64,000 bases of DNA from Siderastrea siderea (lineage: Eukaryota; Cnidaria; Anthozoa; Scleractinia; Rhizangiidae), in NCBI GenBank assembly GCA_964030785.1, contig OZ034973.1, positions 2,358,632 to 2,422,631 of the forward strand, in the 5' to 3' direction. The notes beneath the pieces are model-generated. The model was given only the letters and a program-made list of their open reading frames with translations. It made no database searches and was not told the origin of the DNA. The position numbers and the translations under genes were made by a program. Below are positions 20,644 through 63,739 of this stretch, one piece after another (within the stretch, counting starts at the first letter, position 1; every line of letters starts with the position of its first letter).

Positions 20644-20659
20644 AAAGCGGACCTGTGAG

Positions 20660-34431: not shown

Positions 34432-34437
34432 AATAAA
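34432..34437 (+). terminator. candidate poly(A) signal, gene B
   Basis: AATAAA in the same context as in A; another AATAAA lies about 25 bases earlier in this copy only. Confidence 0.35.
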
Positions 34438-41715: not shown

Positions 41716-44358
41716 ATGGAGCAAGAACTTTCTTCTGCATGTCGTGCGGCCGCGGATGCCTTGGAAGTTTTAAGTCATTTGAGACCTGGTTTTACAAGAA
41801 ACGTTGTCCCTCGGTTGAATTCAACGTCAGTCTCTCCCAGACAGGCGAACAACGGGGAACGTCTAACTGTTAACAGCGAGGAACCTGGACAACGCACGCC
41901 AGACTATCAACGAGGAAAGTGCCGTTCAATCTACGTCTTCGCCAGTGTTTACAAACAGTTCTATTCAAACGCGGCTAACAACATTATTTCCAACACTTGG
42001 CTCGAACCGAGCTAGCAGGAAGAGTGGTATTAGTAGGAGAACAGCAAGGCCAAAGCAGCCCATAAAGTCCACCAGAGGTCGGCCATCCAAGACAGTCGTT
42101 TACAAGGATCTTGTTATCATTCCAAGTCCCAAGATAAACAAAGTGCCTACTCACAACACCCGTCTAAATTTAGAAGAAAGAGATCTTGTCTGCCACGAGT
42201 TTCCTTTTGACAAATGCTGGGATGCAAATTCCCTTAAAAGTGCCATTTTAAATCGCTTCCCAAAGCTTTTGCTTTTTGAATATGTCAAGGTATGTAGCTT
42301 GTCAAGTCAACTCATGTTAGCATCTTCTATTGTGATCATTTTAATACAAAAAATACATAAGCTTTTATTGTTGTTATTTCATTCGTGCACTTGCAATTTT
42401 CAAGAAGCCTTCAATTAATATCAGTGTTTTTCTCAACCTAGCCATGTTATGGAAAGCTGGTAACTCCTAAGTTGGCAGATGGTATAACTCTGGATGCAGA
42501 AAGATGCAGAAAGATGTTAGGTCACTGACCCCTTTGGAATCTGAGGACGAGTGTGAAACCGACGAGGAACTAGAGAACCCAGTGTTAGATAGAAGTCCAA
42601 GGTATTTTTTCTTTTAAATTTTGCACTGGACGGCAAAAAATAAGACCTGTGGAGATTTCTGTGAGTGTTTTTGTATTCTTCTCTTGTCACAAAACCTCAG
42701 TATAAATAGATATGAAAGTTAATTTGACAGCATCCCAATGCTGTGGAATTAGTTCTTGTATATAGACTGACATCTCAGTTTGTGCTACTATTCTTGACAA
42801 TGTCTTTTTGTTGTAAATATTCTCCAGTTTGTCTCAAAAGGGATCCATGCATCTATTGACTGACTGATTGATTGATTGATTGATTGATTGATTATTTATT
42901 GATTGATTGAAACCTTATGCGGCAGGATATTGTTTGTTATTGGTATACTGCTTCTTGTTCATATGATAATAAAATGAACACTTCAAAGTATTTTACATCA
43001 ATTTTTCACTTGGTTTACTTTGTGTTTTAAGTTTTCTGTCAACTTTATTTCTTTTCAGTGTTAATGGAACACAAAGGAACCCTGTGTTGCTTGCATGTGA
43101 GGAGAGCGAGGAAAAGCAAGCCACAGCTGTGGATGAGTTTTTGCACCACCCCTTCCAGGCAGAGGCAGAGTTAAATAATGTAGAGAGCAGTAACTCTGAT
43201 AGTGTTTTGGTAACACCTGAGTCACCTGTATCAGTAATTTCGCCTGTTTTTAGCAATAACTCTACATCATCTGATGTTTTAGGCAATAACTATGTAACAT
43301 CTGAGTTGCCTGTACCAATAATTGAACCTGTACCTGAACCTCAACAAAAACGTACCATCTATGTCCATAGGTTAAACATTAAGAGAGATATGATTGACTT
43401 ATTCCGAGATCCTTTAATCATGGGTCAAGACATAGAGATAATTGTTATTGATGCTAGGGGAGTCGAAGAAGTAGGCAGAGGTGTTGGGGTACTTAGAGAT
43501 GTTTTCTCTCTTTTTTGGAAAGAAACATATGATTCCCTGTTTATAGGAGAAAATGAGCGTGTACCATGTGTTAGGCATGACTACCAAAGAGAAGAATGGG
43601 TTGCTGTTGGTAGAATTTTGGTAAAGGGATATTTAACTTGTCAATACCTACCAGTCCTTTTGTCTCAAATGTTCCTTGCCTGTCTTTTTTGGGGGGAATC
43701 TGCTGTAAGTAGCTACATGCTAACCCAATCCTTTAGAAATTACATTTCAGCTGATGAAAAACGTGTGATTGACCAGTGCCTAGCTGGTGATATGCAGTGG
43801 GATGATAAAGATGAAATGGACCAGCTTTTAGAAGTGCTGAGTAATTATGATTGTCGAAGTAAGGTTAATTCTGAAAATATTGTTCACATCATTGAAGAAA
43901 TAGCCCATAAGGAGCTTCTGCAGAAGCCGCAATATATTGCGGACTGCTGGAAGGATATAGTTTGCACCCTGCTTCCTAGTTTACCTGATTTGACAGCACT
44001 TTCCACAAGGTACGAATTGTTAATTCCATCCACCAGTAAGCTTCTTAGTTGTCTACAGGCAAACCCTGAGAGTGATGGGGAAAGGGATAGCCTTAAGTTT
44101 CTCAAAAGATATATTAAAGGCCTTGATACTCCTCAGAAATTATCAAAATTTGTAAGGTTTATCAGTGGGTCTGAGTTAATGCTTTTTGATGCAATTCAAG
44201 TACATTTTACAAATGTAGCTGGCTTGGGACGCCGACCAATTGCCCACACTTGTAATACTTTGTTGGAGCTATCATCTACATATCAATCATATCCCGAACT
44301 TAGGGAGGAGTTTAGTGCAATACTGACATCCGATTACTGGGAAATGGACATCGTGTGA
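41716..44358 (+). CDS. HECT-like E3 ubiquitin-ligase protein of the transposon (frame-damaged 5' part)
   Basis: Exons as read: 41716-42289 (donor GTATGT), 42442-42601 (acceptor CAACCTAG) and 43059-44358 (acceptor TTTCTTTTCAG). The last exon is intact for over 420 codons. It resembles a HECT domain: V-I-D-A-R-G-V...G-R-G-V-G-V-L-R-D-V at the N-lobe start, G-R-I-L-V-K-G-Y-L further on, and A-H-T-C-N-T-L-L-E-L near the C-terminus with the cysteine where the catalytic one sits, 34 residues from the end. The first exon has an N-terminal frame from ATG 41716 (MEQELSSACRAAADALE), which must shift near 41865 to reach the basic G-R-P-S-K and L-F-E-Y-V-K part. Exon 2 needs another shift near 42512. So this copy probably makes no full protein unless these are sequence errors. 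The role in transposition is unknown. Confidence 0.6.
42866..42909 (+). repeat. (TGAT)n microsatellite in intron 2
   Basis: TGATTGATTGATTGATTGAT run, slightly interrupted, within the intron between the second and third HECT-gene exons. Confidence 0.9.
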
Positions 44359-44730
44359 TAAACCTTTTAACCAAAATTGAAGACGACTGTTTTATGTGTC
44401 AGTTCTGTAGCACATTGTTTATAAACATACCAGTGATCTCCTTTTATTATAAATTGTGTTAACTGGCTTTGATGTTTATTTACAGTTTTTAAAACGTTAA
44501 CCAATGCACACATTATTTGTGCACCGATTCCTGTACATTATACTGGGAAATCATTAGGGAAAAGTTCTATTGTTATAGCAGGCTTGTTATCTATATTTGT
44601 AGTTGAGATTTGAGCAAACAGCTCTTTTGAGTTGTATTGTTGAGGTTTTAATGTTTTAATGTTGACTGTTGTTAACATTAGGTTGCATCTGTTGTGTTTT
44701 ATTCTGATTGATGTAATTTGAAAGGATAAT

Positions 44731-44736
44731 AATAAA
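44731..44736 (+). terminator. candidate poly(A) signal of the HECT-like gene
   Basis: AATAAA about 370 bases after the stop. The opposing integrase gene has its own AATAAA on the minus strand at 44984-44989, about 16 bases past its stop. A poly(C) run (about 44819-44835) separates the two. Confidence 0.4.
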
Positions 44737-45004
44737 TTTCACACTGTTGACATTTCCAATCTGTCACTGACTTTGCTAGTCACCAATCGAGCGGCAGTGG
44801 GAAGCAAAAGGAAATAACACCCCCCCCCCCCCCCCAGTCGCGCTTTTAGTGTAAACTCTGCTGCCCAACCAATCCAATCCTCATAAAAACCATGACGTAA
44901 TAAAACGAATATTTCTAGAACTAGTTTCCCACTAAACAACGAATTTCAACTTTAAAGCTGGGTACTTGGAATTTCTGTTCAAATTTATTTACCACCAAAC
45001 GGGC

Positions 45005-46678
45005 TTAATTCAAGAAAGTTTCTTGATTGATAAGGATGTCCATGCATCTCAAATATTGAATTCTACCATGTTCACCATCCTCATTCAAAGGATGACATGA
45101 GTCATTCAAAATTTGCAGTTGTTGTGCTGTGAGCTGAACATCAACTGCTGGTATTGAAACCTGGTAATCGTTGTCATCTAACGGAAAAGGGCCATCTGGA
45201 TCAAACCCATATAATGGAATTTCATTTGGGTTTAAAAAACTGTCAACTCCAGAGTATCCAGAGTGTATGTTCTCCAAAATCCCAGAAGTGAAAATTTGAA
45301 GTGGAGACAACTGGTGCTCACCAGAAACAGGGTGATTGTTCCACTGACCTGTAAAGTGTTGCAATGCCCTCTTTATCCTTGGTATGTAAACAAAGTGCAA
45401 TGCAAATAAGTGTGCCTCATTTAACGGGTCCAGAATACCCATGTCTTCCATTCCACTAAAGATATTGGCAAAGTGACAAAGTACACCAGCGTAAATATCG
45501 CGATGAGCGCGCTCAACGCGGCAGTTGTGTACAGAGCTTCCCGTTATCATACTTCCCCTGTCCAGTCCTCGATTCTCTAGCATGTACTGTGCCACCCCGA
45601 CATTTTCCAATCCATGATCACTTCTTACTCTTGAAGGTAAACCAAATTCTTGCACGCCTTTCATGAACAGTTCCAACACCGTGTCTGCTCGGTTATTGTC
45701 CTTTAAGGCGGCATACACAATAAGCCTTGAATAACCATCAACACAGCAGTGCACAACAAAGCGGTACCTGATGAGCTTGTGATTGCCATCTATGTGCCAC
45801 AAAGAGTTCGGCGTTGGTACTGAGTACTTTCTACGGTAAACCGGAGTAGTCCAGCGAAGTGCAGTCCCAAGCGGGTCTTGTCTACGAAGACAGTTGCGAA
45901 CCCTCCATCGTTGGATTCGAAATCCTCCTGCCCTGAGAGCTCCAAGCAATCTTCGTTGTCCAATGTTTGGAGTAATACTTCTAATTTCTTTGACAGCGTC
46001 TTCAAGCTGGGAATCTGAAGAAACATTTATACATTTATATAAAGACTAGAACTGTCACCCATGTAGACTATATACCTTTAATAGAACTTATGCACCTCCA
46101 CTTCCTTTCGACTTAATACCGATAAGCTACTGGTATAAATAACAGTGCTACGCACCTGACAGTGCTGTCCAGTTCTCGTTGTCATCACTTAAATTTAATT
46201 CCCGTCTTCTTCGACGTAACGTACTTTCACTGATTCCTAACAAACTGGCGATTTTTGCCCAGGAGAAGTGCAGTTCACGTAAGAATTCGATCTGCTCTCT
46301 TTCGACAACGATGACTGGTCTTCCACTACCGGTTAGTTTAGAAATAGGACAAGCGAACGAATTCGACGTTGTTGATTCAACGGAGTCTCTCTGCTCATAC
46401 ATTGTCATTACTTGAAAAACAAAGCGTACTTTTGTCAAAACAGCTTCAATAATTGTCTTAAAATCTCGAAGCACAGGGTCATCACTTTGCCACACACTTT
46501 GTAGCAGCAACTGTAAAGTTGAAATTGCATCTTCTAGGCGCAAGTTAGCTTCCTCAAAGTATTCAACTGACAAATCTTGAGCGTTCATATTCTGAATACC
46601 AATCAATAGGCTACGAAGAGACTCTACGAAGTTGTAGAGGCCTCTCTCATTCGCATCTCTTAAAGTCTCGTCCGCCAT
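45005..46678 (-). CDS. DDE integrase/transposase of the 10-kb element
   Basis: Two exons on the minus strand: 46678-46156 (starts MADETLRDAN) and 46014-45005. The donor is GTGCGT, the acceptor follows ATGTTTCTTCAG, and the split codon G|AT restores an uninterrupted 510-residue frame. Residues about 128-162 form a helix-turn-helix (F-S-W-A-K-I-A-S-L-L-G-I-S-E-S-T-L then R-R-R-R-R-E-L), preceded by a G-S-G-R-P AT-hook-like stretch. Residues about 245-400 are an rve-type integrase core with W-H-I-D-G-N-H (D~250), R-S-D-H-G-L-E-N (D~307) and R-V-E-R-A-H-R-D (E~342), a DD(34)E spacing. L-R-x-x-D-P-L-G just before the core is typical of a eukaryotic integrase-like family common in fish and cnidarians. 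All catalytic residues are present, so this gene may be active. It is convergent with the HECT-like gene. Confidence 0.9.
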
Positions 46679-46989
46679 TTTGTTTGAAGTTCGCGGGAAA
46701 GTGTACGATCTCAGTTTTGATCACGTGTTGCATACTAATTAGAATAAAAAAATGCTCACTTGGAACGCCAAAAAAATATGGAATAAGTATAAAAAATATG
46801 CAACGCATATAAAATAAAGAGAACGAAAAAAAAAACAATAGCCTTAGCATTTATATTAATATTAATAGGAAGAGATATAAAAAATATAAAAGCAATATAA
46901 AAACATACAGAAAGGAAATAAAAAATATGGCACAGAAATTAAATAGTTGCATTACATATTAACTTATTTGAATATTGACTGGAAAGGCG

Positions 46990-47046
46990 CGCCATAGAGG
47001 AGGCCTAAAGGAAACTATGAAGCTTATGTTAATTAGGCCTCCTCAA
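46990..47046. repeat. palindromic target region of the transposon
   Basis: GAGGAGGCCTAA, about 23 bases, then TTAGGCCTCCTC. The hairpin also occurs near 27417, 53660 and 60290 and is the exact place where the 10-kb element entered beta. Confidence 0.7.
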
Positions 47047-50000
47047 TTTAATGATTACAGTTTAAATTGAAATTACAGCGACGGATGCTAACATTTTTTT
47101 TTTACCAAATACAGTTTATTACAAAATTAAAAGGAAAAGCTACTGAATATTTTACAAGAACAATTTGAGGCAAAAGTAGACACCTATCTAAGAATTACTA
47201 ACAGTTATTACAAATAAATGCCTTAAGTGATTTCTTAAAGGAAGCTGGAGAGGTCGAATTGACGATATCCGCGTTAAGAGAGTTGTAAAACTTAGGTCCT
47301 TGGTAAAAAACAGTAAATTTTTGGATGTTAGTCCGACAGTTTTCCAAAGTTTCACTTGGAAAACGTAAAGACCCCTGAGTAAGCCCCCTCGCTAAGGTTA
47401 ATCCCCCATCTAATAAAGTTCCGTCCACCACTTCCATTTGTAAGAACTAAAAGTTGTATTCCCCCCTCCCCCAGGGGCGTGATAGGGAAAATACGGTGTG
47501 ATAAAATTCACACGAAATTACTCGCACAGTATAAGGTTTCCGGTGTTAAGTGAGTATGAAGGCAAAGACTTCCTTTTGCCCAGGTACACTAGAAATTCTA
47601 GGAACGTAATACATTAATTATGGCGACTCTTATCAAAACGAGTACAACAAAAACTTTCGAGTTAGAGTGCGAATTTAGCTTTTATTTAAGTGTGTTTTAA
47701 AAGAAAAGAATGAGCAGTAAAACAGTAAATTATGGCAAACGGGTGTTACTAAAACGAGTAATGCAGTTAAACGGGTAACGAGTAACGCAGTAACGAGAAA
47801 ACGAGTAACGGGAAAAATTTTCCAAGGGTAAAAAATAGAAAAAGAGTAACGGTAAAAGATGAAAAGGGTGAAAATTACACTGAATAATAATATTTACTTA
47901 GGCAGTGTAGAACTGTAATAAAACGAATAATGTGACCTGAAAGCCTTTGATGTGTGTTGGTGAAAAATGTTGTATTTAATGTCATTCTCGAGAATGGCTC
48001 CATGAAAACGCTATGAAGAAGTTTTTCTCCGAATTTAATGAATTAATCGATATATATTTCAAGTCCCCGTTCTCACTGCAGTGTGCAGCGATATGGTGCA
48101 TACGCTAGACTTTGAATAGTAATAGGCAGTGTCTTAGATATAGCCGGCAGGCGGGTACGGATGTTTGAAGACTATTAAATGCCCGGCAGTCCGAAATTTT
48201 CGGTGAGTTTTGACCGAAAAGCTTATTCTAACGTTCTGAAAGTATTCGATATTTGTTTAGAATTGCCAAGCGATTGAGAAAAGTATTTTAGTTTGGTAGT
48301 TGACGAGTTTTCTGATCATGAGCTTGTGCATACTAGAAAATTACGATGTTGGCGACACTTAAAATTATTAGTGGCTAGACCCACCAGTCAGAAACACACA
48401 GAATTTCTCACTCAAACGTTCTGAAAGAACTGGAAGATTGTTTGCAATTACTAAGCGATTAAAAGACCAATTTGGTTTTGTAGTTGGCGAACTTTCAGAG
48501 CTTTAGCAAGCTATAGAATAGCTGTAGCTTTCTTGATCCCTGTCTGACCCGAGCCGTCACGCCACCATACTGTGACATGTCACGGACGCTGTAGAATTGT
48601 AAATCTGGCCCAAAAAAACGACGACAGTTTCGAATCACCACTATACAAAGTTTAATAGGAAGCCCTTAATAATAGGGTTGCCTCAGTAACTACTGTATAA
48701 TTCTCCGAAACCAGAGTGCCGAGTATTTAGCTGACCTTAATAACCGTGTCTACATGCCCGGCAGTCCCCACAGAGGTTTTAATTACATTTTCCAAATTAT
48801 TGAACTAATATTTCAGTGATATTGATACAAAAACGAATAATCAGTGTTTCTGTTGATGAATCTATTTATACATAAAAGCGATTGCAGAAATGAGGCGAAA
48901 ATCAAACTTGGCGGTTCTGGCTAAAAGTTAATGATAAAAAACTTGCATCACGAAACAAAACGAGCAATAAAATACATTTTAAGATCTAGTTGTCTTTGCT
49001 GATAAGCTTTGGTATTCGCATCTTAGGGAGGGCTGATGAGTACACGTTATTAGGTGATAAGCCTGATATCGTGTAATATTGGTGGGAATTTCGTGTATTT
49101 TTCGTGAGCTGTCGATGTAAATCGCATTATATTAATCTACATTAAGATTTCGAGGGTACACTTGGCTCAAGATTTTAGCTTGCACTTGTAGCTTGCACTT
49201 GTAAATTAGCCATCCTGAGCAGATACAGAAACTGACTTTTTGAACCTTATCCCTAGAACTTCAGAGCAAATCAAGCGATTATTGGTTGTGTGGTATATTT
49301 AACAAAAACTTGTTTTAGTACATACCAAACCAGTGGATAGCCAGCACCAAAAAGTTTCTTTTTTCTGAGAAATGAGGGAAAACTCGCGCACGAAATCCAG
49401 AAAAATGCCGAAAGTGAATATCAGATACTATCCCGAGTTTGAGTAGCCAATCAGAGCGCGCGAAAAACACTATACATGGAAGGAAGAGGCTACACTATTT
49501 GTGGAGATATGGTAGCGAAAAAAATGAGTAAATTAGGTGAATCAAAATGGTGTTCTCTGATTCCTTGGAAGTCAAAGGGTGGCGATTTTTCTTTTTCACT
49601 ATTTTTGCAGCTTTCCGTGTTGTAGTGATCCAGGGAAAGGTCACAAACTCTCATGTGTTGCCGGGTGGGAGCATGAGATGAGAGGCCCTGGAAACAAGGA
49701 TTTGAGTATTCCACCCGCTGCGGGGATTGGAATTTCGTGTTGTTTTCTAAACGTGGAAGACGGAAGATTTTTCAGGTTAAAATAGAAACAAATCCCAAGA
49801 AAGAAAAAAAAAAGGAATAATCGCTGGCGCCAGTTCGTCTTATTGTCATAGCCAGCCCGGCAGCTCAACGGCCACCTGTGGCCACCTGAACTACTCATGA
49901 TGAGAATAACACTTTTCTGGGAAACTCCCCACCTACCCCTCCCCTAACCCAATATTGTTTACGTCTCATCCCTTATAGGAAAATGTTAGGTTAGGAGAGG

Positions 50001-50373
50001 GGTAGGGTTGGGGGGGGGGGGGGGTCCCCAGAAACGTGGAATGATCCGAGAAGTTCTAAACTGAAATAAGATGAAACGTAGGCGACTGTACTAGTCATAA
50101 CACTAATCTAATTAAGGCAAAATAGTAACATCATAAAGTAAACTGAAAAAAAAAACAGGAACACGTTGGGAAGAAGCAACTGAAATGTGTTTCATCTTTT
50201 ACATAGGACGTGGGAGTATATATTATCACAACGTGACGTATAACCGAGATGACCTCAAACAATTAAGCTTAACTGTGGAAAGCACAATGTTACTCAAACT
50301 AAATAAATGTAAGGGATCAGCGCGAACCATTTAGAGTGTGTTGGTTCTTGAGTTTGCAACAGCTTTTTCAGCA
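47003..50373. other. right part of beta: LINE remnant, AACGAG short repeats, no intact gene
   Basis: About 47735-47820 is crowded with ACGAGTAACG words. At 48181-48510 lies a degenerate internal duplication (AACGTTCTGAAAG ... AGCGATT... twice). 49,150-50,373 is nearly identical to 55,780-57,004 and 62,410-63,633 and includes a poly(G) tract of about 15 (14 and 13 in the next copies). The short opposing frames at 49490-49898 look like shadows without coding signs. Confidence 0.5.
47015..47440 (-). mobile_element. LINE ORF2 3' end (minus strand) in beta
   Basis: The minus frame 47437-47198 reads F-Y-Q-G-P-K-F-Y-N-S-L-N, then I-V-N-S-T-S-P-A-S-F-K-K-S-L-K and stops. This is the characteristic C-terminus of a CR1/jockey-like reverse transcriptase protein. 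Equivalent fragments lie in every segment copy. No intact reverse transcriptase domain. Confidence 0.65.
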
Positions 50374-51498
50374 ATGACAAACAGGAAAATTTTATTGCTT
50401 TTCCTATGCGTAAGTTGTTTTACTTTATCTTTTGAATCTGTTCTAATTGCTTTAATACCGAAATCTTTACCTTAAAGCTGAAGTCCCTTAAAATTTTCGT
50501 AGCAAATCAGTAGTGAAAACTATTATTTATTTTATTTATTCAATTTGTTTAATGTAGCCAAATAAGCTACATTAAAACTTTCCGGTTGTTGTATCTTTTA
50601 TGATAGTCATGAATCAGTTCTGTTTACGGTCAATTTACCCTGTTACGGTCTAGTGAATTCGTCAGTGTATAAAACTGCTCGACCAAGCAAGTATCTTATT
50701 ATTTAATTGTCACTTTTGATGCTAGTTTACTACTTCCTTTCTACAGTCCACAGAGAACTCCAGGCCATAGTTATGTTAATACTTAGTCGGAGTTAATGCA
50801 AATCAGTTAAATGGAAATATTGAAAACTCAATTGCGATTTCATGCCACTTATCACTAGACATGTCATTTTTTTTATCTCCTCGCATATTCAGGTTTCTGT
50901 TCTAACAGAAGCGACTTCGCTGACACTTGAAGGTTCTCACAGAATGCGTGAAGACAAATCCCGGTTGATGCAGACAAGAAAAATAACAAAAGGGGATGAT
51001 TTAATGGGGAATGCAAGAAACATCCGTGAAGTGAACACTTCAACAGCATCAGCTGCAGTCGAAAAGCAGATGGCTAGGATAAACACCACCACAAGGAGGA
51101 CAAAACGACACGATTTGCAAACTGGTGCAAAGAGAAACGCAACCAGCTCATTCCTTGCCAGCCAGTTCGTGATGGAAAGAAGTGTGTCAAATGCTTCGAA
51201 GACAGCACCAAAGAACGAAAATGCGTCCCTCAACACGCTTGACAACAGAAATACTAACTCCTCGAGAGGCAGCTACATACCAACGACGAACAGATGGCGA
51301 AGAGGAATGAACCCTTGTGTAAGGAAGATCGTTAAAACCTACTACAGTAACCTGAAGACAGTGCTGACCGAGTACAAATGCCGGCGAGCCACATTCTACT
51401 GTAGTCCCACGGGAATTGGCTTGGGACGATGTGAATCTGTCAAGACATATTATCCTAGTATCAATAAGATTCTGACTACTTCTTGTAGATGCAGCTGA
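50374..51498 (+). CDS. secreted furin-processed six-cysteine protein, copy C (new first exon)
   Basis: Exons 50374-50409 (12 codons, MTNRKILLLFLC, donor GTAAGT) and 50893-51498 (acceptor ATATTCAG), phase 0, 213 residues. The signal peptide now has a T-N-R-K start and a stronger hydrophobic core (ILLLFLC + VSVL); the rest follows A and B. The prodomain has R-R-T-K-R and N-R-W-R-R before the six-cysteine domain, with S for P at D-K-S-R and A for T at R-N-A-T-S-S. The upstream sequence, and so presumably the promoter, is unrelated to that of A and B; no TATA box at the matching distance, but TGACGTA (CRE-like) lies about 140 bases upstream. The first exon and the second exon belong to different duplication units, joined inside the intron at 50478. 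Prediction needs transcript support. Confidence 0.7.
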
Positions 51499-51949
51499 AA
51501 ATTTAGAAAAACAGTTTCCACGTTGAATTAGAATTAAGAAGCGATAAAAATTGTCCAGCCACGCTTTACTGAACCGTTATCTATATCATGATTTAAAGTG
51601 AATGAACAGGATCTTCAATGAAGCAGAAGGGGGAGAGTGAGGCATGCTGGCCCAAAAACCCAATCCATTCCCGTTCCCATGGGAACAAGCCGCCAAACGC
51701 CTACTTTACTCCCCATCTACAATTGTAAGGAGGTCTTAATGGTGCAGAGGGGAGAGGGACCTTGAGGGTACAAAAAATAAATTCATTAAAGACGGCTGAC
51801 GGTCAAATTTGTGGCCAATAAGAGATTTGGGGGTCAATAAAAAAATTCCTTTGATGTTAACTGGTTTGTTTAACGGTTCAGTATCGGTGTTTTGGATGTC
51901 TTCGCAGCTTATCATTCAAATTCTAACTAAAGTGTACAATTCAAGCGCT

Positions 51950-51955
51950 AATAAA
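51950..51955 (+). terminator. candidate poly(A) signal, gene C
   Basis: AATAAA in GCGCTAATAAATTTTG, conserved with A, B and D. Confidence 0.35.
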
Positions 51956-52856
51956 TTTTGTAGTGTCAAGTTTTTCTAAGTTTTATTACCATATTAAGAT
52001 TGTTAGTAATAATTCCGCATTATAAGCATGTTCTGAAAAACCCTTCAGGGTTGAGCTAATAAACTGTATTCTATTGTATTACATTGTATTCTTGTTCATA
52101 TACGGCAGTAGTTTTCAGAAAATGCTCCCATGGAAGTAGCCTGCAATCAGGCCAAATTTTAGCATCGATCTCATATCTTCTTACATTTTCGTTTTGCTTT
52201 TCCTGATTAAATGTTTCACCGAGCGAAACGAAAACCAAACCTTGATCGCAGTAGAGCAAAACAACAAGCGCACTGATCAGAAACGAACAACAGTGTTTTG
52301 AGAAAGGAGTTGAAAAACCAGTTTTATTGATTTATTTGTAGTTAAATCAACATTTGAGAATTAATGGCAGGGATATAAACTGCTAACAGTGACAGAAAAA
52401 GTCGCACGATTTTTTTACCTCAAGTAAAAAATCATTGCTCGCGTTTCTGATCAGGGGAGACAAACGATGTTTCTACGCTTATGAAATTTCACCGTTCGCT
52501 ATCCACCTGGATTGCTTTTAAAATGATGAATATATGAATATCATATAACAGAACTGCGGGGTGAAGAATTAAATGTAAGGAAGATAGGTGCACCTTTTGC
52601 AGTTGCAAAAATAAAACCTGGAAAAAAAACCAGGCTTGTACGCTTTTAATTAGTCACGACATCACTTTTAATCCATAACATTTTCAGAAAATGTCATTGC
52701 ATTACAATCAAATTAAACAATACAGCGTGAAAGGGTTTTGTGTGATGTTTATTTACTCACTGATACCCACTACAAGAGTCACTGGCTCACTGTGGTTACT
52801 CATTTGTTGTCGTTGTTGTTTTGTACTACTGAACTCGTGAACAGTAAACAGAAATC

Positions 52857-53360
52857 ATGACATGTGCCTGTGCGCAGATGTCTGTTTTTTTCCTCTGTCA
52901 GTATTCAGGAAGGAAAGAGGAGGTGTATTTAATTACCGCAAAATTTTACCTGCACTACACAACTGAACGCACTCAAAAAGTTGAGGTGTGGGCGTTATTG
53001 TCAACCTCGCCCACGTTACAGTTTATTGAACACAATCGGTTACCAGCACTGAAAAAACTGCAGCAAAAGGATAAAATGGAAGAATGCTTATGTACCAAAG
53101 CCGGACACGAAAACTCTAAAAAATGTTACAAGTTTCTCAACCGTGCCGTCAATGTTTCAATTGTGCCAACAGTGAGCCATTGCTCACATCCAGATTTTTG
53201 TTTCCGTTTCGGCAAAAGGCTAATTTATTGGTTTGTCGTCGTGGCTGTACCATACTGTTCGTTATTTTCGACTGTATTAATTGATGCTAGTTTTTTATTA
53301 TCACAAATAACATCTGCCGAGAGTAACGACATCCTAATAACAACAACGATTAAAATCTGA
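52857..53360 (+). CDS. 167-codon open frame, doubtful hypothetical protein
   Basis: The frame may begin as an exon after TTTTTCCTCTGTCAG (52887-52901) rather than at its ATG. It encodes an amphipathic basic stretch (R-L-P-A-L-K-K-L-Q-Q-K-D-K), a cysteine-containing middle and a hydrophobic segment (L-I-Y-W-F-V-V-V-A-V-P-Y-C-S-L-F) that could span a membrane. It is intact in gamma-1 and gamma-2, but indels break it in alpha and beta, so constraint is not shown. It could be an untranslated region or an old element remnant. No family recognised. Confidence 0.25.
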   Translation: MTCACAQMSVFFLCQYSGRKEEVYLITAKFYLHYTTERTQKVEVWALLSTSPTLQFIEHNRLPALKKLQQKDKMEECLCTKAGHENSKKCYKFLNRAVNVSIVPTVSHCSHPDFCFRFGKRLIYWFVVVAVPYCSLFSTVLIDASFLLSQITSAESNDILITTTIKI

Positions 53361-53669
53361 TGATTGTTCTAAGAAATTCTAAAAGTAGCGACTACGGAAA
53401 AGTAAACATTAGAACATTGATTTGTCCTTCTCTTCCTCTAGAATTTGTGCTTGTTGTGGCTGAATACTCAAGCTACACAATTTTGTCGATCATTTTGCAG
53501 TTTGTTGAAATAGTACCTGGGAATTAAATTGTTCTGTGAATTTCAGTCAGTACTCACATCCTTCACTCAAATACAATGAAGTATTTTTTTTTTTTGCCGC
53601 ACCACAGACAACAATACAAAGATGATAATTAAAGAACAAGGAAAGAAGAAAAGTGGCGAGGAGGCCTAA

Positions 53670-54100
53670 AGGAAACTATGAAGCTTATGTTAATTAGGCC
53701 TCCTCAATTTAATGATTACAGTTTAAATTGAATTTACAGCGACGGATGTTAACATTTTTTTTACCAAAATACAGTTCATTACAAATTAAAAGGAAAAGGT
53801 ACTGAATATTTTACAAGAACAATTTGAGGCAAAAGTAGACACATCTAAGAATTACTAATAGTTATTACAAATAAATGCCTTAAGTGATCTCTTAAAGGAA
53901 GCTGGAGAGGTCGAATTGACGATATCCGCGTTAAGAGAGTTGTAGAACTTAGGTCCTTGGTAAACGACAGAAAATTTTTTGATTTTAGTCCGACAGTTTT
54001 CCAAAGTCTCACTTGGAAAACGTAAAGAGCCCAATAAGCCCCCTCGCTAAGGTTAATCCCCCATCTAATAAAGCCCCGTCCACCACTTCCATTTGTAAGA
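53670..54100 (-). mobile_element. LINE 3' end remnant in gamma-1
   Basis: Same fragment as in beta, with a few more changes. The empty site of the 10-kb transposon (GCGAGGAGGCC) lies just before it. Confidence 0.6.
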
Positions 54101-54810
54101 ACTAAAAGTTGTATTCCCCCCCTCCCCCAGGGGCGTAATAGGGAAAATACGGTGTGATAAAATTTACACGAAATTACTCACACAGTATAAGGTTTCCGGT
54201 GTTAATACTCAGTCGAGTGAGTATGAAGGCAAAGAATTCCTGTTGCCCAGGTACACTAGAAATTCTAGGAACGTAATAAATTAATTATGGCGACTCTTAT
54301 CAAACGAGTACAACAAAAACTTTCGAGTTAGAGTGCGAATTTAGCTTTTATTTAAGTGTGTTTTAAAAGAAAAGAATGAGCAGTAAAACAGTAAATTATG
54401 GCAAACGAGTAATGCAGTAACGAGAAAACGAGTAACGGGAAAAAATTTGAAAGGCAAAAATTAAAAAAAAAAAAGGTAACGTACGGTAAAAGATGAAAAG
54501 GGTGAAAATTACACTGAATAATAATATTTACTTAGGCAGTGTAGAACTGTAATAAAACGAATAATGTGACCTGAAAGCCTTTGATGTGTGTTGGTGAAAA
54601 ATGTTGTATTTAATGTAATTCTCGGGAATGGCTCCATGAAAAAGCTATGAAGAAGTTTTTGTCCGAATTTAATGAATTAATCGATATATATTTCAAGTCC
54701 CCGTTCTCACTGCAGTGTGCAGCGATATGGTGCATTCGCTAGACTGAATGGTAATAGGCAGTGTCTTAGATATACCCGGCAGGCGGGTACGGATGTTTGA
54801 AGACTATTAA

Positions 54811-55140
54811 ATGCCCGGCAGTCCGAAATTTTCGGTGAGTTTTCACCGAAAAGCTTATTCTAACGTTCTGAAAGTATTCGATATTTGTTTAGAATTGCCA
54901 AGCGATTCAGAAAAGTATTTTAGTTTGGTAGTTGACGAGTTTTCTGAGCTCGTGCATACTAGAAAATTACGATGTTGGCGACACTTAAAATTATTAGTGG
55001 CTAGACCCACCAGTCAGAAACACACAGAATTTCTCACTCAAACGTTCTGAAAGAACTGGAAGATTGTTTGCAATTACTAAGCGATTAAAAGACCAATTTG
55101 GTTTTGTAGTTGGCGAACTTTCAGAGCTTTAGCAAGCTAT
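54811..55140 (+). repeat. degenerate internal duplication with a 79-codon frame
   Basis: Two related ~160-bp blocks: AACGTTCTGAAAGTATTCGA...AGCGATTCAGAAAAG and AACGTTCTGAAAGAACTGGA...AGCGATTAAAAGACC, both leading to GTTGRCGARYTTTC. The first lies in an open frame (54811-55050). In beta the same frame is cut by a C-to-G change to TGA. No function inferred. Confidence 0.5.
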
Positions 55141-57004
55141 ACAATAGCTGTAGCTTTCTTGATCCCTGTCTGACCCGAGCCGTCACGCCACCATACTGTG
55201 ACATGTCACGGACGCTGTAGAGTTGTAAATCTGGCTCAAAAAAACCACGATAGTTTCGAATCACTTACCACCACTATACAAAGTTTAAAAGGAAGCCCTT
55301 AATAATAGGGTTGCCTCAGTAATTACTGTATAATTTTCCGAAACCAGAGTGCCGGGTATTTAGCTGACCTTAATAACCGTGTCTACATGCCCGGCAGTTC
55401 CCACAGAGGTTTTAAATACATTTTTCAAATTATTGAACTAATATTTCAGTGATATTGATACAAAACGAATAATCAGTGTTTCTGTTGATGAATCTATTTA
55501 TGCATAAAAGCGATTGCAGGAATGAAGCGAAAATCAAACTTGGCGGCTCTGGCTAAAAGTTAATGATAAAAAACTTGCATCACGAAACATAACGAGCAAT
55601 AAAATACATTTTAAGATCTAGTTGTCTTTGCTGATAAGCTTTGGTATTGGCATCTTAGGGAGGGCTGATGAGTACACGTTATTAGGTGATAAGCCTGATA
55701 TCGTGTAATATTGGTGGGAATTTCGTGTATTTTTCGTGAGCTGTCGATGTAAATGGCATTATATTAATCTACATTAAGATTTCGAGGGTACACTTGGCTC
55801 AAGATTTTAGCTTGCACTTGTAGCTTGCACTTGTAAATTAGCCATCCTGAGCAGATACAGAAACTGACTTTTTGAACCTTATCCCTAGAACTTCAGAGCA
55901 AATCAAGCGATTATTGGTTGTGTGGTATATTTAACAAAAACTTGTTTTAGTACATACCAAACCAGTGGATAGCCAGCACCAAAAAGTTTCTTTTTTCTGA
56001 GAAATGAGGGAAAACTCGCGCACGAAATCCAGAAAAATGCCGAAAGTGAATATCAGATACTATCCCGAGTTTGAGTAGCCAATCAGAGCGCGCGAAAAAC
56101 ACTATACATGGAAGGAAGAGGCTACACTATTTGTGGAGATATGGTAGCGAAAAAAATGAGTAAATTAGGTGAATCAAAATGGTGTTCTCTGATTCCTTGG
56201 AAGTCAAAGGGTGGCGATTTTTCTTTTTCACTATTTTTGCAGCTTTCCGTGTTGTAGTGATCAAGGGAAAGGTCACAAACTCTCATGTGTTGCCGGGTGG
56301 GAGCATGAGATGAGAGGCCCTGGAAACAAGGATTTGCGTATTCCACCCGCTGCGGGGATTGGAATTTCGTGTTGTTTTCTAAACGTGGAAGACGGAAGAT
56401 TTTTCAGGTTAAAATAGAAACAAATCCCAAGAAAGAAAAAAAAAAGGAATAATCGCTGGCGCCAGTTCGTCTTATTGTCATAGCCAGCCCGGCAGCTCAA
56501 CGGCCACCTGTGGCCACCTGAACTACTCATGATGAGAATAACACTTTTCTGGGAAACTCCCCACCTACCCCTCCCCTAACCCAATATTGTTTACGTCTCA
56601 TCCCTTATAGGAAAATGTTAGGTTAGGAGAGGGGTAGGGTTGGGGGGGGGGGGGGTCCCCAGAAACGTGGAATGATCCGAGAAGTTCTAAACTGAAATAA
56701 GATGAAACGTAGGCGACTGTACTAGTCATAACACTAATCTAATTAAGGCAAAATAGTAACATCATAAAGTAAACTGAAAAAAAAAACAGGAACACGTTGG
56801 GAAGAAGCAACTGAAATGTGTTTCATCTTTTACATAGGACGTGGGAGTATATATTATCACAACGTGACGTATAACCGAGATGACCTCAAACAATTAAGCT
56901 TAACTGTGGAAAGCACAATGTTACTCAAACTAAATAAATGTAAGGGATCAGCGCGAACCATTTAGAGTGTGTTGGTTCTTGAGTTTGCAACAGCTTTTTC
57001 AGCA

Positions 57005-58129
57005 ATGACAAACAGGAAAATTTTATTGCTTTTCCTATGCGTAAGTTGTTTTACTTTATCTTTTGAATCTGTTCTAATTGCTTTAATACCGAAATCTTTA
57101 CCTTAAAGCTGAAGTCCCTTAAAATTTTCGTAGCAAATCAGTAGTGAAAACTATTATTTATTTTATTTATTCAATTTGTTTAATGTAGCCAAATAAGCTA
57201 CATTAAAACTTTCCGGTTGTTGTATCTTTTATGATAGTCATGAATCAGTTCTGTTTACGGTCAATTTACCCTGTTACGGTCTAGTGAATTCGTCAGTGTA
57301 TAAAACTGCTCGACCAAGCAAGTATCTTATTATTTAATTGTCACTTTTGATGCTAGTTTACTACTTCCTTTCTACAGTCCACAGAGAACTCCAGGCCATA
57401 GTTATGTTAATACTTAGTCGGAGTTAATGCAAATCAGTTAAATGGAAATATTGAAAACTCAATTGCGATTTCATGCCACTTATCACTAGACATGTCATTT
57501 TTTTTATCTCCTCGCATATTCAGGTTTCTGTTCTAACAGAAGCGACTTCGCTGACACTTGAAGGTTCTCACAGAATGCGTGAAGACAAATCCCGGTTGAT
57601 GCAGACAAGAAAAATAACAAAAGGGGATGATTTAATGGGGAATGCAAGAAACATCCGTGAAGTGAACACTTCAACAGCATCAGCTGCAGTCGAAAAGCAG
57701 ATGGCTAGGATAAACACCACCACAAGGAGGACAAAACGACACGATTTGCAAACTGGTGCAAAGAGAAACGCAACCAGCTCATTCCTTGCCAGCCAGTTCG
57801 TGATGGAAAGAAGTGTGTCAAATGCTTCGAAGACAGCACCAAAGAACGAAAATGCGTCCCTCAACACGCTTGACAACAGAAATACTAACTCCTCGAGAGG
57901 CAGCTACATACCAACGACGAACAGATGGCGAAGAGGAATGAACCCTTGTGTAAGGAAGATCGTTAAAACCTACTACAGTAACCTGAAGACAGTGCTGACC
58001 GAGTACAAATGCCGGCGAGCCACATTCTACTGTAGTCCCACGGGAATTGGCTTGGGACGATGTGAATCTGTCAAGACATATTATCCTAGTATCAATAAGA
58101 TTCTGACTACTTCTTGTAGATGCAGCTGA
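57005..58129 (+). CDS. secreted furin-processed six-cysteine protein, copy D (new first exon)
   Basis: Exons 57005-57040 (MTNRKILLLFLC, donor GTAAGT) and 57524-58129. The intron is 483 bases, the same as in C. The predicted 213-residue protein is identical to that of C. The first exon comes from the end of gamma-1 and the second from the start of gamma-2, so the tandem arrangement itself creates the gene. Identity to C implies a very recent duplication, gene conversion or an assembly duplicate. Confidence 0.7.
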
Positions 58130-58580
58130 AAATTTAGAAAAACAGTTTCCACGTTGAATTAGAATTAAGAAGCGATAAAAATTGTCCAGCCACGCTTTAC
58201 TGAACCGTTATCTATATCATGATTTAAAGTGAATGAACAGGATCTTCAATGAAGCAGAAGGGGGAGAGTGAGGCATGCTGGCCCAAAAACCCAATCCATT
58301 CCCGTTCCCATGGGAACAAGCCGCCAAACGCCTACTTTACTCCCCATCTACAATTGTAAGGAGGTCTTAATGGTGCAGAGGGGAGAGGGACCTTGAGGGT
58401 ACAAAAAATAAATTCATTAAAGACGGCTGACGGTCAAATTTGTGGCCAATAAGAGATTTGGGGGTCAATAAAAAAATTCCTTTGATGTTAACTGGTTTGT
58501 TTAACGGTTCAGTATCGGTGTTTTGGATGTCTTCGCAGCTTATCATTCAAATTCTAACTAAAGTGTACAATTCAAGCGCT

Positions 58581-58586
58581 AATAAA
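58581..58586 (+). terminator. candidate poly(A) signal, gene D
   Basis: AATAAA, same context as in C. Confidence 0.35.
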
Positions 58587-59487
58587 TTTTGTAGTGTCAA
58601 GTTTTTCTAAGTTTTATTACCATATTAAGATTGTTAGTAATAATTCCGCATTATAAGCATGTTCTGAAAAACCCTTCAGGGTTGAGCTAATAAACTGTAT
58701 TCTATTGTATTACATTGTATTCTTGTTCATATACGGCAGTAGTTTTCAGAAAATGCTCCCATGGAAGTAGCCTGCAATCAGGCCAAATTTTAGCATCGAT
58801 CTCATATCTTCTTACATTTTCGTTTTGCTTTTCCTGATTAAATGTTTCACCGAGCGAAACGAAAACCAAACCTTGATCGCAGTAGAGCAAAACAACAAGC
58901 GCACTGATCAGAAACGAACAACAGTGTTTTGAGAAAGGAGTTGAAAAACCAGTTTTATTGATTTATTTGTAGTTAAATCAACATTTGAGAATTAATGGCA
59001 GGGATATAAACTGCTAACAGTGACAGAAAAAGTCGCACGATTTTTTTACCTCAAGTAAAAAATCATTGCTCGCGTTTCTGATCAGGGGAGACAAACGATG
59101 TTTCTACGCTTATGAAATTTCACCGTTCGCTATCCACCTGGATTGCTTTTAAAATGATGAATATATGAATATCATATAACAGAACTGCGGGGTGAAGAAT
59201 TAAATGTAAGGAAGATAGGTGCACCTTTTGCAGTTGCAAAAATAAAACCTGGAAAAAAAACCAGGCTTGTACGCTTTTAATTAGTCACGACATCACTTTT
59301 AATCCATAACATTTTCAGAAAATGTCATTGCATTACAATCAAATTAAACAATACAGCGTGAAAGGGTTTTGTGTGATGTTTATTTACTCACTGATACCCA
59401 CTACAAGAGTCACTGGCTCACTGTGGTTACTCATTTGTTGTCGTTGTTGTTTTGTACTACTGAACTCGTGAACAGTAAACAGAAATC

Positions 59488-59991
59488 ATGACATGTGCCT
59501 GTGCGCAGATGTCTGTTTTTTTCCTCTGTCAGTATTCAGGAAGGAAAGAGGAGGTGTATTTAATTACCGCAAAATTTTACCTGCACTACACAACTGAACG
59601 CACTCAAAAAGTTGAGGTGTGGGCGTTATTGTCAACCTCGCCCACGTTACAGTTTATTGAACACAATCGGTTACCAGCACTGAAAAAACTGCAGCAAAAG
59701 GATAAAATGGAAGAATGCTTATGTACCAAAGCCGGACACGAAAACTCTAAAAAATGTTACAAGTTTCTCAACCGTGCCGTCAATGTTTCAATTGTGCCAA
59801 CAGTGAGCCATTGCTCACATCCAGATTTTTGTTTCCGTTTCGGCAAAAGGCTAATTTATTGGTTTGTCGTCGTGGCTGTACCATACTGTTCGTTATTTTC
59901 GACTGTATTAATTGATGCTAATTTTTTATTATCACAAATAACATCTGCCGAGAGTAACGACATCCTAATAACAACAACGATTAAAATCTGA
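59488..59991 (+). CDS. 167-codon open frame, second copy
   Basis: Same as the frame in gamma-1 with one residue changed (N for S in I-D-A-N-F). The same doubts apply. Confidence 0.25.
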   Translation: MTCACAQMSVFFLCQYSGRKEEVYLITAKFYLHYTTERTQKVEVWALLSTSPTLQFIEHNRLPALKKLQQKDKMEECLCTKAGHENSKKCYKFLNRAVNVSIVPTVSHCSHPDFCFRFGKRLIYWFVVVAVPYCSLFSTVLIDANFLLSQITSAESNDILITTTIKI

Positions 59992-60299
59992 TGATTGTTC
60001 TAAGAAATTCTAAAAGTAGCGACTACGGAAAAGTAAACATTAGAACATTGATTTGTCCTTCTCTTCCTCTAGAATTTGTGCTTGTTGTGGCTGAATACTC
60101 AAGCTACACAATTTTGTCGATCATTTTGCAGTTTGTTGAAATAGTACCTGGGAATTAAATTGTTCTGTGAATTTCAGTCAGTACTCACATCCTTCACTCA
60201 AATACAATGAAGTTTTTTTTTTTTTGCCGCACCACAGACAACAATACAAAGATGATAATTAAAGAACAAGGAAAGAAGAAAAGTGGCGAGGAGGCCTAA

Positions 60300-60730
60300 A
60301 GGAAACTATGAAGCTTATGTTAATTAGGCCTCCTCAATTTAATGATTACAGTTTAAATTGAATTTACAGCGACGGATGTTAACATTTTTTTTACCAAAAT
60401 ACAGTTCATTACAAATTAAAAGGAAAAGGTACTGAATATTTTACAAGAACAATTTGAGGCAAAAGTAGACACATCTAAGAATTACTAATAGTTATTACAA
60501 ATAAATGCCTTAAGTGATCTCTTAAAGGAAGCTGGAGAGGTCGAATTGACGATATCCGCGTTAAGAGAGTTGTAGAACTTAGGTCCTTGGTAAACGACAG
60601 AAAATTTTTTGATTTTAGTCCGACAGTTTTCCAAAGTCTCACTTGGAAAACGTAAAGAGCCCAATAAGCCCCCTCGCTAAGGTTAATCCCCCATCTAATA
60701 AAGCCCCGTCCACCACTTCCATTTGTAAGA
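60300..60730 (-). mobile_element. LINE 3' end remnant in gamma-2
   Basis: Copy of the fragment in gamma-1. Confidence 0.6.
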
Positions 60731-61440
60731 ACTAAAAGTTGTATTCCCCCCCTCCCCCAGGGGCGTAATAGGGAAAATACGGTGTGATAAAATTTACACG
60801 AAATTACTCACACAGTATAAGGTTTCCGGTGTTAATACTCAGTCGAGTGAGTATGAAGGCAAAGAATTCCTGTTGCCCAGGTACACTAGAAATTCTAGGA
60901 ACGTAATAAATTAATTATGGCGACTCTTATCAAACGAGTACAACAAAAACTTTCGAGTTAGAGTGCGAATTTAGCTTTTATTTAAGTGTGTTTTAAAAGA
61001 AAAGAATGAGCAGTAAAACAGTAAATTATGGCAAACGAGTAATGCAGTAACGAGAAAACGAGTAACGGGAAAAAATTTGAAAGGCAAAAATTAAAAAAAA
61101 AAAAGGTAACGTACGGTAAAAGATGAAAAGGGTGAAAATTACACTGAATAATAATATTTACTTAGGCAGTGTAGAACTGTAATAAAACGAATAATGTGAC
61201 CTGAAAGCCTTTGATGTGTGTTGGTGAAAAATGTTGTATTTAATGTAATTCTCGGGAATGGCTCCATGAAAAAGCTATGAAGAAGTTTTTGTCCGAATTT
61301 AATGAATTAATCGATATATATTTCAAGTCCCCGTTCTCACTGCAGTGTGCAGCGATATGGTGCATTCGCTAGACTGAATGGTAATAGGCAGTGTCTTAGA
61401 TATACCCGGCAGGCGGGTACGGATGTTTGAAGACTATTAA

Positions 61441-61770
61441 ATGCCCGGCAGTCCGAAATTTTCGGTGAGTTTTCACCGAAAAGCTTATTCTAACGTTCTG
61501 AAAGTATTCGATATTTGTTTAGAATTGCCAAGCGATTCAGAAAAGTATTTTAGTTTGGTAGTTGACGAGTTTTCTGAGCTCGTGCATACTAGAAAATTAC
61601 GATGTTGGCGACACTTAAAATTATTAGTGGCTAGACCCACCAGTCAGAAACACACAGAATTTCTCACTCAAACGTTCTGAAAGAACTGGAAGATTGTTTG
61701 CAATTACTAAGCGATTAAAAGACCAATTTGGTTTTGTAGTTGGCGAACTTTCAGAGCTTTAGCAAGCTAT
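61441..61770 (+). repeat. degenerate internal duplication, gamma-2 copy
   Basis: Same two-block structure as in gamma-1, with the 79-codon frame intact. Confidence 0.5.
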
Positions 61771-63633
61771 ACAATAGCTGTAGCTTTCTTGATCCCTGTC
61801 TGACCCGAGCCGTCACGCCACCATACTGTGACATGTCACGGACGCTGTAGAGTTGTAAATCTGGCTCAAAAAAACCACGATAGTTTCGAATCACTTACCA
61901 CCACTATACAAAGTTTAAAAGGAAGCCCTTAATAATAGGGTTGCCTCAGTAATTACTGTATAATTTTCCGAAACCAGAGTGCCGGGTATTTAGCTGACCT
62001 TAATAACCGTGTCTACATGCCCGGCAGTTCCCACAGAGGTTTTAAATACATTTTTCAAATTATTGAACTAATATTTCAGTGATATTGATACAAAACGAAT
62101 AATCAGTGTTTCTGTTGATGAATCTATTTATGCATAAAAGCGATTGCAGGAATGAAGCGAAAATCAAACTTGGCGGCTCTGGCTAAAAGTTAATGATAAA
62201 AAACTTGCATCACGAAACATAACGAGCAATAAAATACATTTTAAGATCTAGTTGTCTTTGCTGATAAGCTTTGGTATTGGCATCTTAGGGAGGGCTGATG
62301 AGTACACGTTATTAGGTGATAAGCCTGATATCGTGTAATATTGGTGGGAATTTCGTGTATTTTTCGTGAGCTGTCGATGTAAATGGCATTATATTAATCT
62401 ACATTAAGATTTCGAGGGTACACTTGGCTCAAGATTTTAGCTTGCACTTGTAGCTTGCACTTGTAAATTAGCCATCCTGAGCAGATACAGAAACTGACTT
62501 TTTGAACCTTATCCCTAGAACTTCAGAGCAAATCAAGCGATTATTGGTTGTGTGGTATATTTAACAAAAACTTGTTTTAGTACATACCAAACCAGTGGAT
62601 AGCCAGCACCAAAAAGTTTCTTTTTTCTGAGAAATGAGGGAAAACTCGCGCACGAAATCCAGAAAAATGCCGAAAGTGAATATCAGATACTATCCCGAGT
62701 TTGAGTAGCCAATCAGAGCGCGCGAAAAACACTATACATGGAAGGAAGAGGCTACACTATTTGTGGAGATATGGTAGCGAAAAAAATGAGTAAATTAGGT
62801 GAATCAAAATGGTGTTCTCTGATTCCTTGGAAGTCAAAGGGTGGCGATTTTTCTTTTTCACTATTTTTGCAGCTTTCCGTGTTGTAGTGATCAAGGGAAA
62901 GGTCACAAACTCTCATGTGTTGCCGGGTGGGAGCATGAGATGAGAGGCCCTGGAAACAAGGATTTGCGTATTCCACCCGCTGCGGGGATTGGAATTTCGT
63001 GTTGTTTTCTAAACGTGGAAGACGGAAGATTTTTCAGGTTAAAATAGAAACAAATCCCAAGAAAGAAAAAAAAAAGGAATAATCGCTGGCGCCAGTTCGT
63101 CTTATTGTCATAGCCAGCCCGGCAGCTCAACGGCCACCTGTGGCCACCTGAACTACTCATGATGAGAATAACACTTTTCTGGGAAACTCTCCACCTACCC
63201 CTCCCCTAACCCAATATTGTTTACGTCTCATCCCTTATAGGAAAATGTTAGGTTAGGAGAGGGGTAGGGTTGGGGGGGGGGGGGTCCCCAGAAACGTGGA
63301 ATGATCCGAGAAGTTCTAAACTGAAATAAGATGAAACGTAGGCGACTGTACTAGTCATAACACTAATCTAATTAAGGCAAAATAGTAACATCATAAAGTA
63401 AACTGAAAAAAAAAACAGGAACACGTTGGGAAGAAGCAACTGAAATGTGTTTCATCTTTTACATAGGACGTGGGAGTATATATTATCACAACGTGACGTA
63501 TAACCGAGATGACCTCAAACAATTAAGCTTAACTGTGGAAAGCACAATGTTACTCAAACTAAATAAATGTAAGGGATCAGCGCGAACCATTTAGAGTGTG
63601 TTGGTTCTTGAGTTTGCAACAGCTTTTTCAGCA

Positions 63634-63669
63634 ATGACAAACAGGAAAATTTTATTGCTTTTCCTATGC
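63634..63669 (+). CDS. third copy of the new first exon; rest of gene beyond window
   Basis: ATG at 63634, 12 codons (MTNRKILLLFLC), donor GTAAGT at 63670, identical to the first exons of C and D. After 63739 the intron sequence is unlike that of C and D, so its second exon must lie to the right of the window. This is the best candidate for the original gene that donated the exon; whether it is another family member cannot be seen. Confidence 0.5.
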
Positions 63670-63739
63670 GTAAGTTGTTTTACTTTATCTTTTGAATCTG
63701 TTCTAATTGCTTTAATACCGAAATCTTTACCTTAAAGCT

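What the first reader, a model, noticed from the sequence alone, without database searches (positions are those of the whole stretch)
50374..57523. New chimeric genes made by tandem duplication through introns: signal-peptide exon swap
Copies A and B of the six-cysteine gene start with exon MAPFF(I); copies C and D start with exon MTNRKILLLFLC. The joint of the 6.63-kb tandem unit (ACCTTAAAG|CT|GAAGTCCC at 50478 and 57109) lies in intron 1. To its right is the intron of A/B (GTACTGAAGTCCC at 23521 and 32964). To its left is the intron of the downstream exon seen unrearranged at 63739 (AAAGCTTACC). The parents share CT at the joint, a 2-bp microhomology. Both exons end in phase 0, so the product keeps its frame and gains a new signal peptide and probably a new promoter. 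Every added unit adds one such gene.
Basis: partly seen in the sequence, partly recalled or inferred. Interest (0 to 1): 0.88.

Follow-up and report, generated by a model that had tools for sequence, protein, structure and literature searches.

The report
Tandem duplication swapped secretion-signal exons
In a genome that is likely a coral's, two near-identical copies of a gene for a small cysteine-rich protein begin with the first exon of a different subfamily of the same gene cluster; a tandem duplication with its ends in two introns likely built them, and they would then make the old protein from a new start, which is a clear base-level example of a known way to make new genes, with expression still untested.

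Summary
Genes A and B open with MAPFF...; C and D open with MTNRKILLLFLC and share A/B's second exon. The joint (50478 and 57109) lies in intron 1: left of it is the intron seen at 63670-63739, right of it the intron of A/B; the parents share only CT. Frames and GT-AG sites are intact, and the array reads B - C - D - X in one orientation with period 6631/6630, as a tandem duplication predicts.

MTNRKILLLFLC is a first exon of another subfamily in the cluster (eight-cysteine genes P1-P3; P2 starts MRHRTKLLLFLC), so the chimera pairs an eight-cysteine gene's 5' end with a six-cysteine gene's body. The downstream parent X has no recognisable second exon of its own kind over the next 58 kb. C and D differ by 2 substitutions in 6.63 kb; divergence from unit 1 falls from 68/2021 to 3/1460 near the joint, so the event is young, with a recombination or conversion edge beside it.

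The mechanism is known (D. yakuba chimeras, Sdic). Expression, promoter function and copy number are untested. New member of a known kind.

The parts
23275..23304 (+). Gene A exon 1 (MAPFFIIAVL), parental type
   Evidence: splice sites read from sequence, not from RNA
23937..24542 (+). Gene A exon 2 (six-cysteine body, stop included)
32870..32899 (+). Gene B exon 1 (MAPFFIFAVL): left parent, kept at the left edge of the array
33380..33985 (+). Gene B exon 2
32966..50477 (+). Unit 1 of the tandem array, interrupted by insertions at 34695-35480 and 36945-46996
48926..49907 (+). Part of unit 1 homologous to the 3' flank of the eight-cysteine gene P3 (84.8% and 93.7%); shows the upstream of C is subfamily-P territory
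   Evidence: Cflank 27-406 and 406-1008, query from 48900
50374..50409 (+). Gene C exon 1 (MTNRKILLLFLC), homologous to exon 1 of P1-P3
50410..50892 (+). Gene C chimeric intron 1 (483 nt, GT-AG): left part from X, right part from A/B
50478..50479 (+). Joint 1 (shared CT)
50893..51498 (+). Gene C exon 2 (six-cysteine body)
50478..57108 (+). Unit 2 (6631 bp)
57005..57040 (+). Gene D exon 1
57109..57110 (+). Joint 2 (same CT)
57524..58129 (+). Gene D exon 2, identical to C
57109..63738 (+). Unit 3 (6630 bp); 2 substitutions and 3 gap columns from unit 2
63634..63669 (+). Exon 1 of X, the right parent, with its unrearranged intron from 63670 on; no second exon of its kind recognised downstream

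Best explanation
Genes C and D join the first exon of an eight-cysteine subfamily (X type) to the second exon of a six-cysteine subfamily (A/B type), and they were likely made by a tandem duplication whose two ends fell in the first introns of B and X. Shown by sequence: order B - C - D - X in one orientation; unrearranged introns at both outer edges; the same new joint at both inner edges; open frames and GT-AG sites. Inferred: a break near CT in each intron was rejoined with little or no homology, giving B - C - X; the 6.63-kb unit was later repeated once more, probably by exchange between units, giving D. Predicted, untested: C and D are transcribed from the X-type 5' end, spliced 50409^50893 and 57040^57524, and make a precursor that would be cut to nearly the same six-cysteine product as A/B, in a different place, time or amount.
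For: Edges and joints agree to the base. In 223 kb there are three MTNRK exons (C, D, X) and four MAPFF exons (A, B and, outside the window, E, F), plus a MASFF version at the broken copy G; only C and D combine MTNRK with the six-cysteine exon. X's exon 1 matches those of P1, P2 and P3 at 25, 25 and 30 of 36 bases, reached by 0 of 10,000 shuffles each; with P3 the match runs on through about 75 bp of intron and about 100 bp before the ATG. The 1.73-kb 5' flank of A has copies at B, E, F and, in two pieces, before G, and no hit of 50 columns or more upstream of C or D; C's 5' flank instead matches the surroundings of P genes. Downstream of exon 2, C is closest to B (1971 of 2070 columns, 95.2%) against E 91.9%, A 91.4%, F 91.0%, G 84.1%, as expected if unit 1 is B's. 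Precedent: D. yakuba tandem duplications unite the 5' end of one gene with the 3' end of a near neighbour (PMC5460883, passages).
Against: No RNA evidence of any kind. X has no recognisable second exon of its own kind, so the right parent may be a dead remnant whose 5' end no longer works. The TATA-like stretch is altered in X, C and D. In the 1.1 kb from the joint to past the stop, C is slightly closer to A (20 differences) than to B (25), so the copies are mosaic and B as sole source of exon 2 is not certain. Divergence between units 1 and 2 is uneven. In introns, P1 and P2 give no BLAST match to X; only P3 does. Intact frames prove little: C and D are too young to have decayed.
Confidence: 0.86

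Rival explanations
1. The chimeric structure is real DNA but silent or unspliced: a by-product of duplication with no transcript, since it took its 5' end from an already broken gene X. (This rivals the predicted function, not the origin by tandem duplication.)
For: No second exon of its kind for X within 58 kb; TATA-like stretch changed from P2 TATAAATAG and P3 AAATATAAGAG to AAATGTAAGGG; no exon-1-joined relative among the 17 database sequences read; too few changes since origin to show selection (changes in exon 2 seen only in C/D among six copies: 2 amino-acid, 2 silent, read).
Against: Exon 1, donor and about 100 bp before the ATG of X stay alignable with P3; donor GTAAGT, acceptor and frame are all intact.
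Confidence: 0.4
2. Assembly error: haplotypes or repeats were joined in tandem, so C, D or both do not exist as drawn.
For: C and D are almost identical over 6.63 kb, the kind of repeat whose copy number assemblers can get wrong; two coral assemblies held allelic duplications before cleaning (PMC10236652, passages).
Against: The joint is between two sequences that share only CT, without N, inside introns, and appears twice; an allelic join would be expected in homologous sequence. Unit 1 differs from unit 2 by 2.1-3.3% in its three pieces and by a 10-kb insertion. Copy number of the young unit remains open.
Confidence: 0.08
3. The chimera is ancestral and A/B acquired MAPFF later.
For: Only that chimera and A-type share exon 2.
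Against: It would need two independent later breaks at the same base, one at B's edge and one at X's edge. MAPFF-type exon 1 is also found at E, F and (as MASFF) at broken copy G, whose 5' flank is 17-20% diverged, so MAPFF looks like the older state.
Confidence: 0.03
4. Exon 1 is irrelevant: the six-cysteine exon is expressed from within intron 1, from an in-frame ATG 51 bases before the exon (MPLITRHV[L/I]FFISSHIQ).
For: The reading frame is open there in B, C and D, and database frames P0001-P0004 start at that ATG.
Against: In A the ATG is ATC; the more distant P0008-P0010 do not keep it; MAPFF exon 1 with its GTGAGT donor is kept in A, B, E and F.
Confidence: 0.07

Closest known systems
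Chimeric genes from tandem duplications in Drosophila yakuba (PMC5460883; passages read)
   [quoted passage not shown] parents remain at the edges.
   Different: There RNA data exist (76 chimeras in 15 lines, 24 with raised expression over half or more of the exonic segment, as quoted). Here both ends lie in introns, exchange is between two subfamilies of one cluster, the unit was repeated again, and no RNA was available.
Sdic of Drosophila melanogaster (PMC7475035; passages read)
   Same: A chimera of two adjacent genes that was then amplified in tandem, with gene conversion among copies.
   [quoted passage not shown] here the duplication joint itself is the fusion and needs no deletion.
Tandemly duplicated gene clusters of corals (PMC10236652; abstract start and passages read)
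   Same: Likely the same kind of genome; tandem duplicates are almost a third of predicted genes in the two corals studied.
   Different: The only mention of chimeric genes there is as a gene-prediction error across tandem copies, which their workflow splits at introns over 5 kb; fusion at a duplication joint does not appear under the words chimeric, fusion or exon shuffling. I did not read the whole text.
Cystine-knot growth factors (Spaetzle, IL-17, NGF; trunk/PTTH as a lead)
   Same: Pro-part, basic cleavage-like sites before the body, six cysteines ending in CxC, two predicted beta hairpins.
   Different: No Pfam match better than E 0.058, no PDB relative by sequence, only weak fold matches.

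Membership tests
Chimeric gene made by tandem duplication across gene boundaries | Joint unites 5' part of the right gene with 3' part of the left gene, same orientation | tested here: met
Chimeric gene made by tandem duplication across gene boundaries | Both parental junctions still present at the outer edges of the array | tested here: met
   B at 32870-32966 and X at 63634-63739
Chimeric gene made by tandem duplication across gene boundaries | Right parent is a complete gene | tested here: inconclusive
   Between X and C8:2480218 tblastn with P-type exon 2 found only the six-cysteine exons of F and E and hits with E above 1; a diverged, unrelated or more distant exon 2 is not excluded
Chimeric gene made by tandem duplication across gene boundaries | Chimera is transcribed and spliced | not testable with these tools
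   No RNA data; none of the 17 database sequences read joins an exon 1 to exon 2 (an 18th, P0018, not read)
Sdic-like amplified chimera | Chimera itself repeated in tandem | tested here: met
   C and D, 2 substitutions in 6.63 kb
Sdic-like amplified chimera | Fusion by deletions after duplication | tested here: not met
   The joint connects the two parental introns directly
Origin of the first joint by recombination between homologous sequences | Long shared sequence at the parental breakpoints | tested here: not met
   Shared CT only; up to CTGA if X once read as P3 does
Cystine-knot growth factor superfamily | Fold of two beta hairpins tied by a cystine knot | tested here: inconclusive
trunk/PTTH/noggin-like | Sequence match to a known member | tested here: inconclusive
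   No Pfam match better than E 0.058 and no PDB sequence match for either subfamily; coral trunk proteins named in PMC6660194 (passages) were not compared

The most novel reading that the evidence does not exclude
A working gene mint: an orphaned promoter-plus-signal exon of one secreted-ligand subfamily, stranded without its own second exon, was put back to use when a tandem duplication placed it in front of another subfamily's ligand exon, and each further unit now adds a ligand gene under the stranded exon's control, with copy number still varying among individuals.
Probability: 0.25. Interest if true: 0.72.

Novelty: new member of a known kind. Interest (0 to 1): 0.46.

Why it matters
Chimeric genes are often recognised only after their parents or joints have blurred (general knowledge). 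Here both parental junctions and two copies of the new joint sit within 31 kb, at one-base resolution, and the event is young (units 2 and 3 differ by 0.03%; the joint is bracketed between about 0.2% and 3.4% divergence). It is a clean case for asking whether a swapped 5' exon changes where a secreted protein is made before selection has had time to act, in a likely non-bilaterian animal.

Full report
WHERE IT IS. The window is G000:C8:2358632-2422631 of an 831-Mb, 402-contig assembly. No call names the species. I take it for a stony coral or another cnidarian by inference only (from recall of coral transposons and gene families), and no result below depends on it.

OBSERVATION. A and B start MAPFFI[I/F]AVL, C and D start MTNRKILLLFLC; exon 2 (606 bp with stop) is shared. 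C and D encode the same protein; A-B, A-C and B-C differ at 8, 11 and 11 sites of exon 2 (5, 7 and 6 change the residue). MTNRKILLLFLC stands a third time at 63634, followed by other DNA from 63740 on.

GEOMETRY. Self-comparison shows three units: unit 1 = 32966-50477, interrupted by insertions at 34695-35480 and 36945-46996; unit 2 = 50478-57108; unit 3 = 57109-63738. Unit 1 begins inside B's intron 1 and unit 3 ends inside X's intron 1. A tandem duplication predicts exactly this: old junctions at the two outer edges, one new junction at each inner edge. All four agree to the base. The parents share CT; P3, a relative of X, reads CTGA at that place, so the overlap at the time could have been four bases. 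Two bases is within chance.

WHERE EXON 1 CAME FROM. I fetched the flanks. The 223 kb hold six six-cysteine genes with open frames (A-D in the window, F and E at C8:2458677 and 2472058, E with an in-frame 27-bp deletion in exon 2) and one broken copy, G, at 2309-2319 kb. They also hold eight-cysteine genes P1, P2, P3 (exon 2 at 2290915, 2297306, 2302156) and a broken fourth at 2298202. Their first exons, at 2288638, 2294969 and 2300208, read MRHRTKLLLFPY, MRHRTKLLLFLC and MSNGKNLLFFLW, each 36 bp with a GTAAGTT donor. They match X's exon at 25, 25 and 30 of 36 bases, and none of 10,000 shuffles reached that in any of the three. With P3 the match extends about 100 bp before the ATG and about 75 bp into the intron; P1 and P2 give no BLAST match to X in the intron and align there only loosely. 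So MTNRKILLLFLC is a P-type exon 1. C's upstream kilobase also matches the sequence that follows P3's exon 2, as in an old tandem pair of P genes. C and D therefore combine the 5' end of one subfamily with the body of the other.

THE RIGHT PARENT. X's own second exon is missing as far as I can see. From X to C8:2480218, about 58 kb away, where distant relatives begin, P-type exon 2 probes find only the six-cysteine exons of F and E and hits with E above 1. P introns are 1.9-2.3 kb long. X may be a remnant, or its exon 2 may be unrecognisable. This weakens the claim that the duplication brought a working promoter. In A, B, E and F a TATAAAA lies about 60 bp before the ATG (4 of 5 six-cysteine 5' ends of MAPFF type checked; G differs). 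In the P type P2 reads TATAAATAG and P3 AAATATAAGAG, P1 has only CATAAATTC, and X, C and D read AAATGTAAGGG. These are motif readings, not tests.

AGE AND TRAFFIC AMONG COPIES. Units 2 and 3: 2 substitutions in about 6.63 kb. Unit 1 against unit 2: 2.4%, 3.3% and 2.1% in its three pieces, but the third piece has 68 differences in 2021 bp up to 49017 and 3 in 1460 bp from there to the joint; 0 of 500 uniform scatters reached this contrast. Either an ordinary crossover with another haplotype replaced what lies left of about 49.0 kb, or conversion levelled the right part. In the 1.1 kb right of the joint C is nearer A (1.78%) than B (2.22%), and B carries a divergent tract at the columns of C 50681-50844. 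Beyond exon 2, C is nearest B: 95.2% against 91.9% (E), 91.4% (A), 91.0% (F) and 84.1% (G). The copies appear to exchange sequence.

LITERATURE. PMC5460883 (passages) describes the same geometry in Drosophila yakuba and reports raised expression for 24 of 76 chimeras; PMC7475035 (passages) describes Sdic, a two-gene chimera amplified in tandem with conversion; PMC10236652 (abstract start and passages) reports pervasive tandem gene clusters in two corals and treats chimeric gene models there as prediction errors; PMC6660194 (passages) reports trunk-like ligands in corals, a lead for the family that I did not test. PMC3449122 and PMC4503668 were seen in search listings only.

VERDICT. Real, well explained, ordinary in mechanism, unusually clear in its traces. 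What would make it important, expression of C/D from the X-type start, is untested.

Noticed in passing
36945-46996: About 10 kb of transposon inside unit 1, absent from units 2 and 3. Ends TATGGCGCGCC.../...GGCGCGCCATA with a 6-bp GAGGAG repeat on either side; carries a rva_4 integrase-like frame (45005-46045, minus strand; E 1.5e-79) and a weak HECT-like frame (42973-44358; below Pfam's cut-off). Seems to contain a nested element at 36979-41410 with about 900-bp inverted ends, which has a 95% inverted copy at C8:2441086-2445524.
   Followed up: partly
34695-35480: Second insertion in unit 1, with inverted ends ACACTCAAA.../...TTTGAGTGT.
   Followed up: no
23321-23463: About 143-bp insertion with inverted ends in A's intron 1, absent from B, about 60 bp before the intronic place where the joint falls. 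F's intron 1 is also interrupted, 14-25 bp beyond that place.
   Followed up: no
46997-50477: Sharp edge at about 49017: 3.4% divergence from units 2/3 to its left, 0.2% to its right; crossover or conversion edge.
   Followed up: partly
33169-33332 (columns of C 50681-50844; B coordinates estimated): B carries a divergent tract shared in part with E, as if converted from another copy.
   Followed up: no
33329-33379, 50842-50892 and 57473-57523: In-frame ATG in the intron 51 bases before exon 2 (MPLITRHV[L/I]FFISSHIQ) in B, C and D; lost in A. A possible alternative start.
   Followed up: partly
L014 at C8:2480218 and L015 at C8:2485948: Distant cysteine-rich relatives of the eight-cysteine type downstream of the cluster.
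   Followed up: no
19910-20724: Reverse-transcriptase-like fragment, minus strand (RVT_1 E 0.09 only for 19910-20308; no Pfam match for 20236-20724).
   Followed up: no
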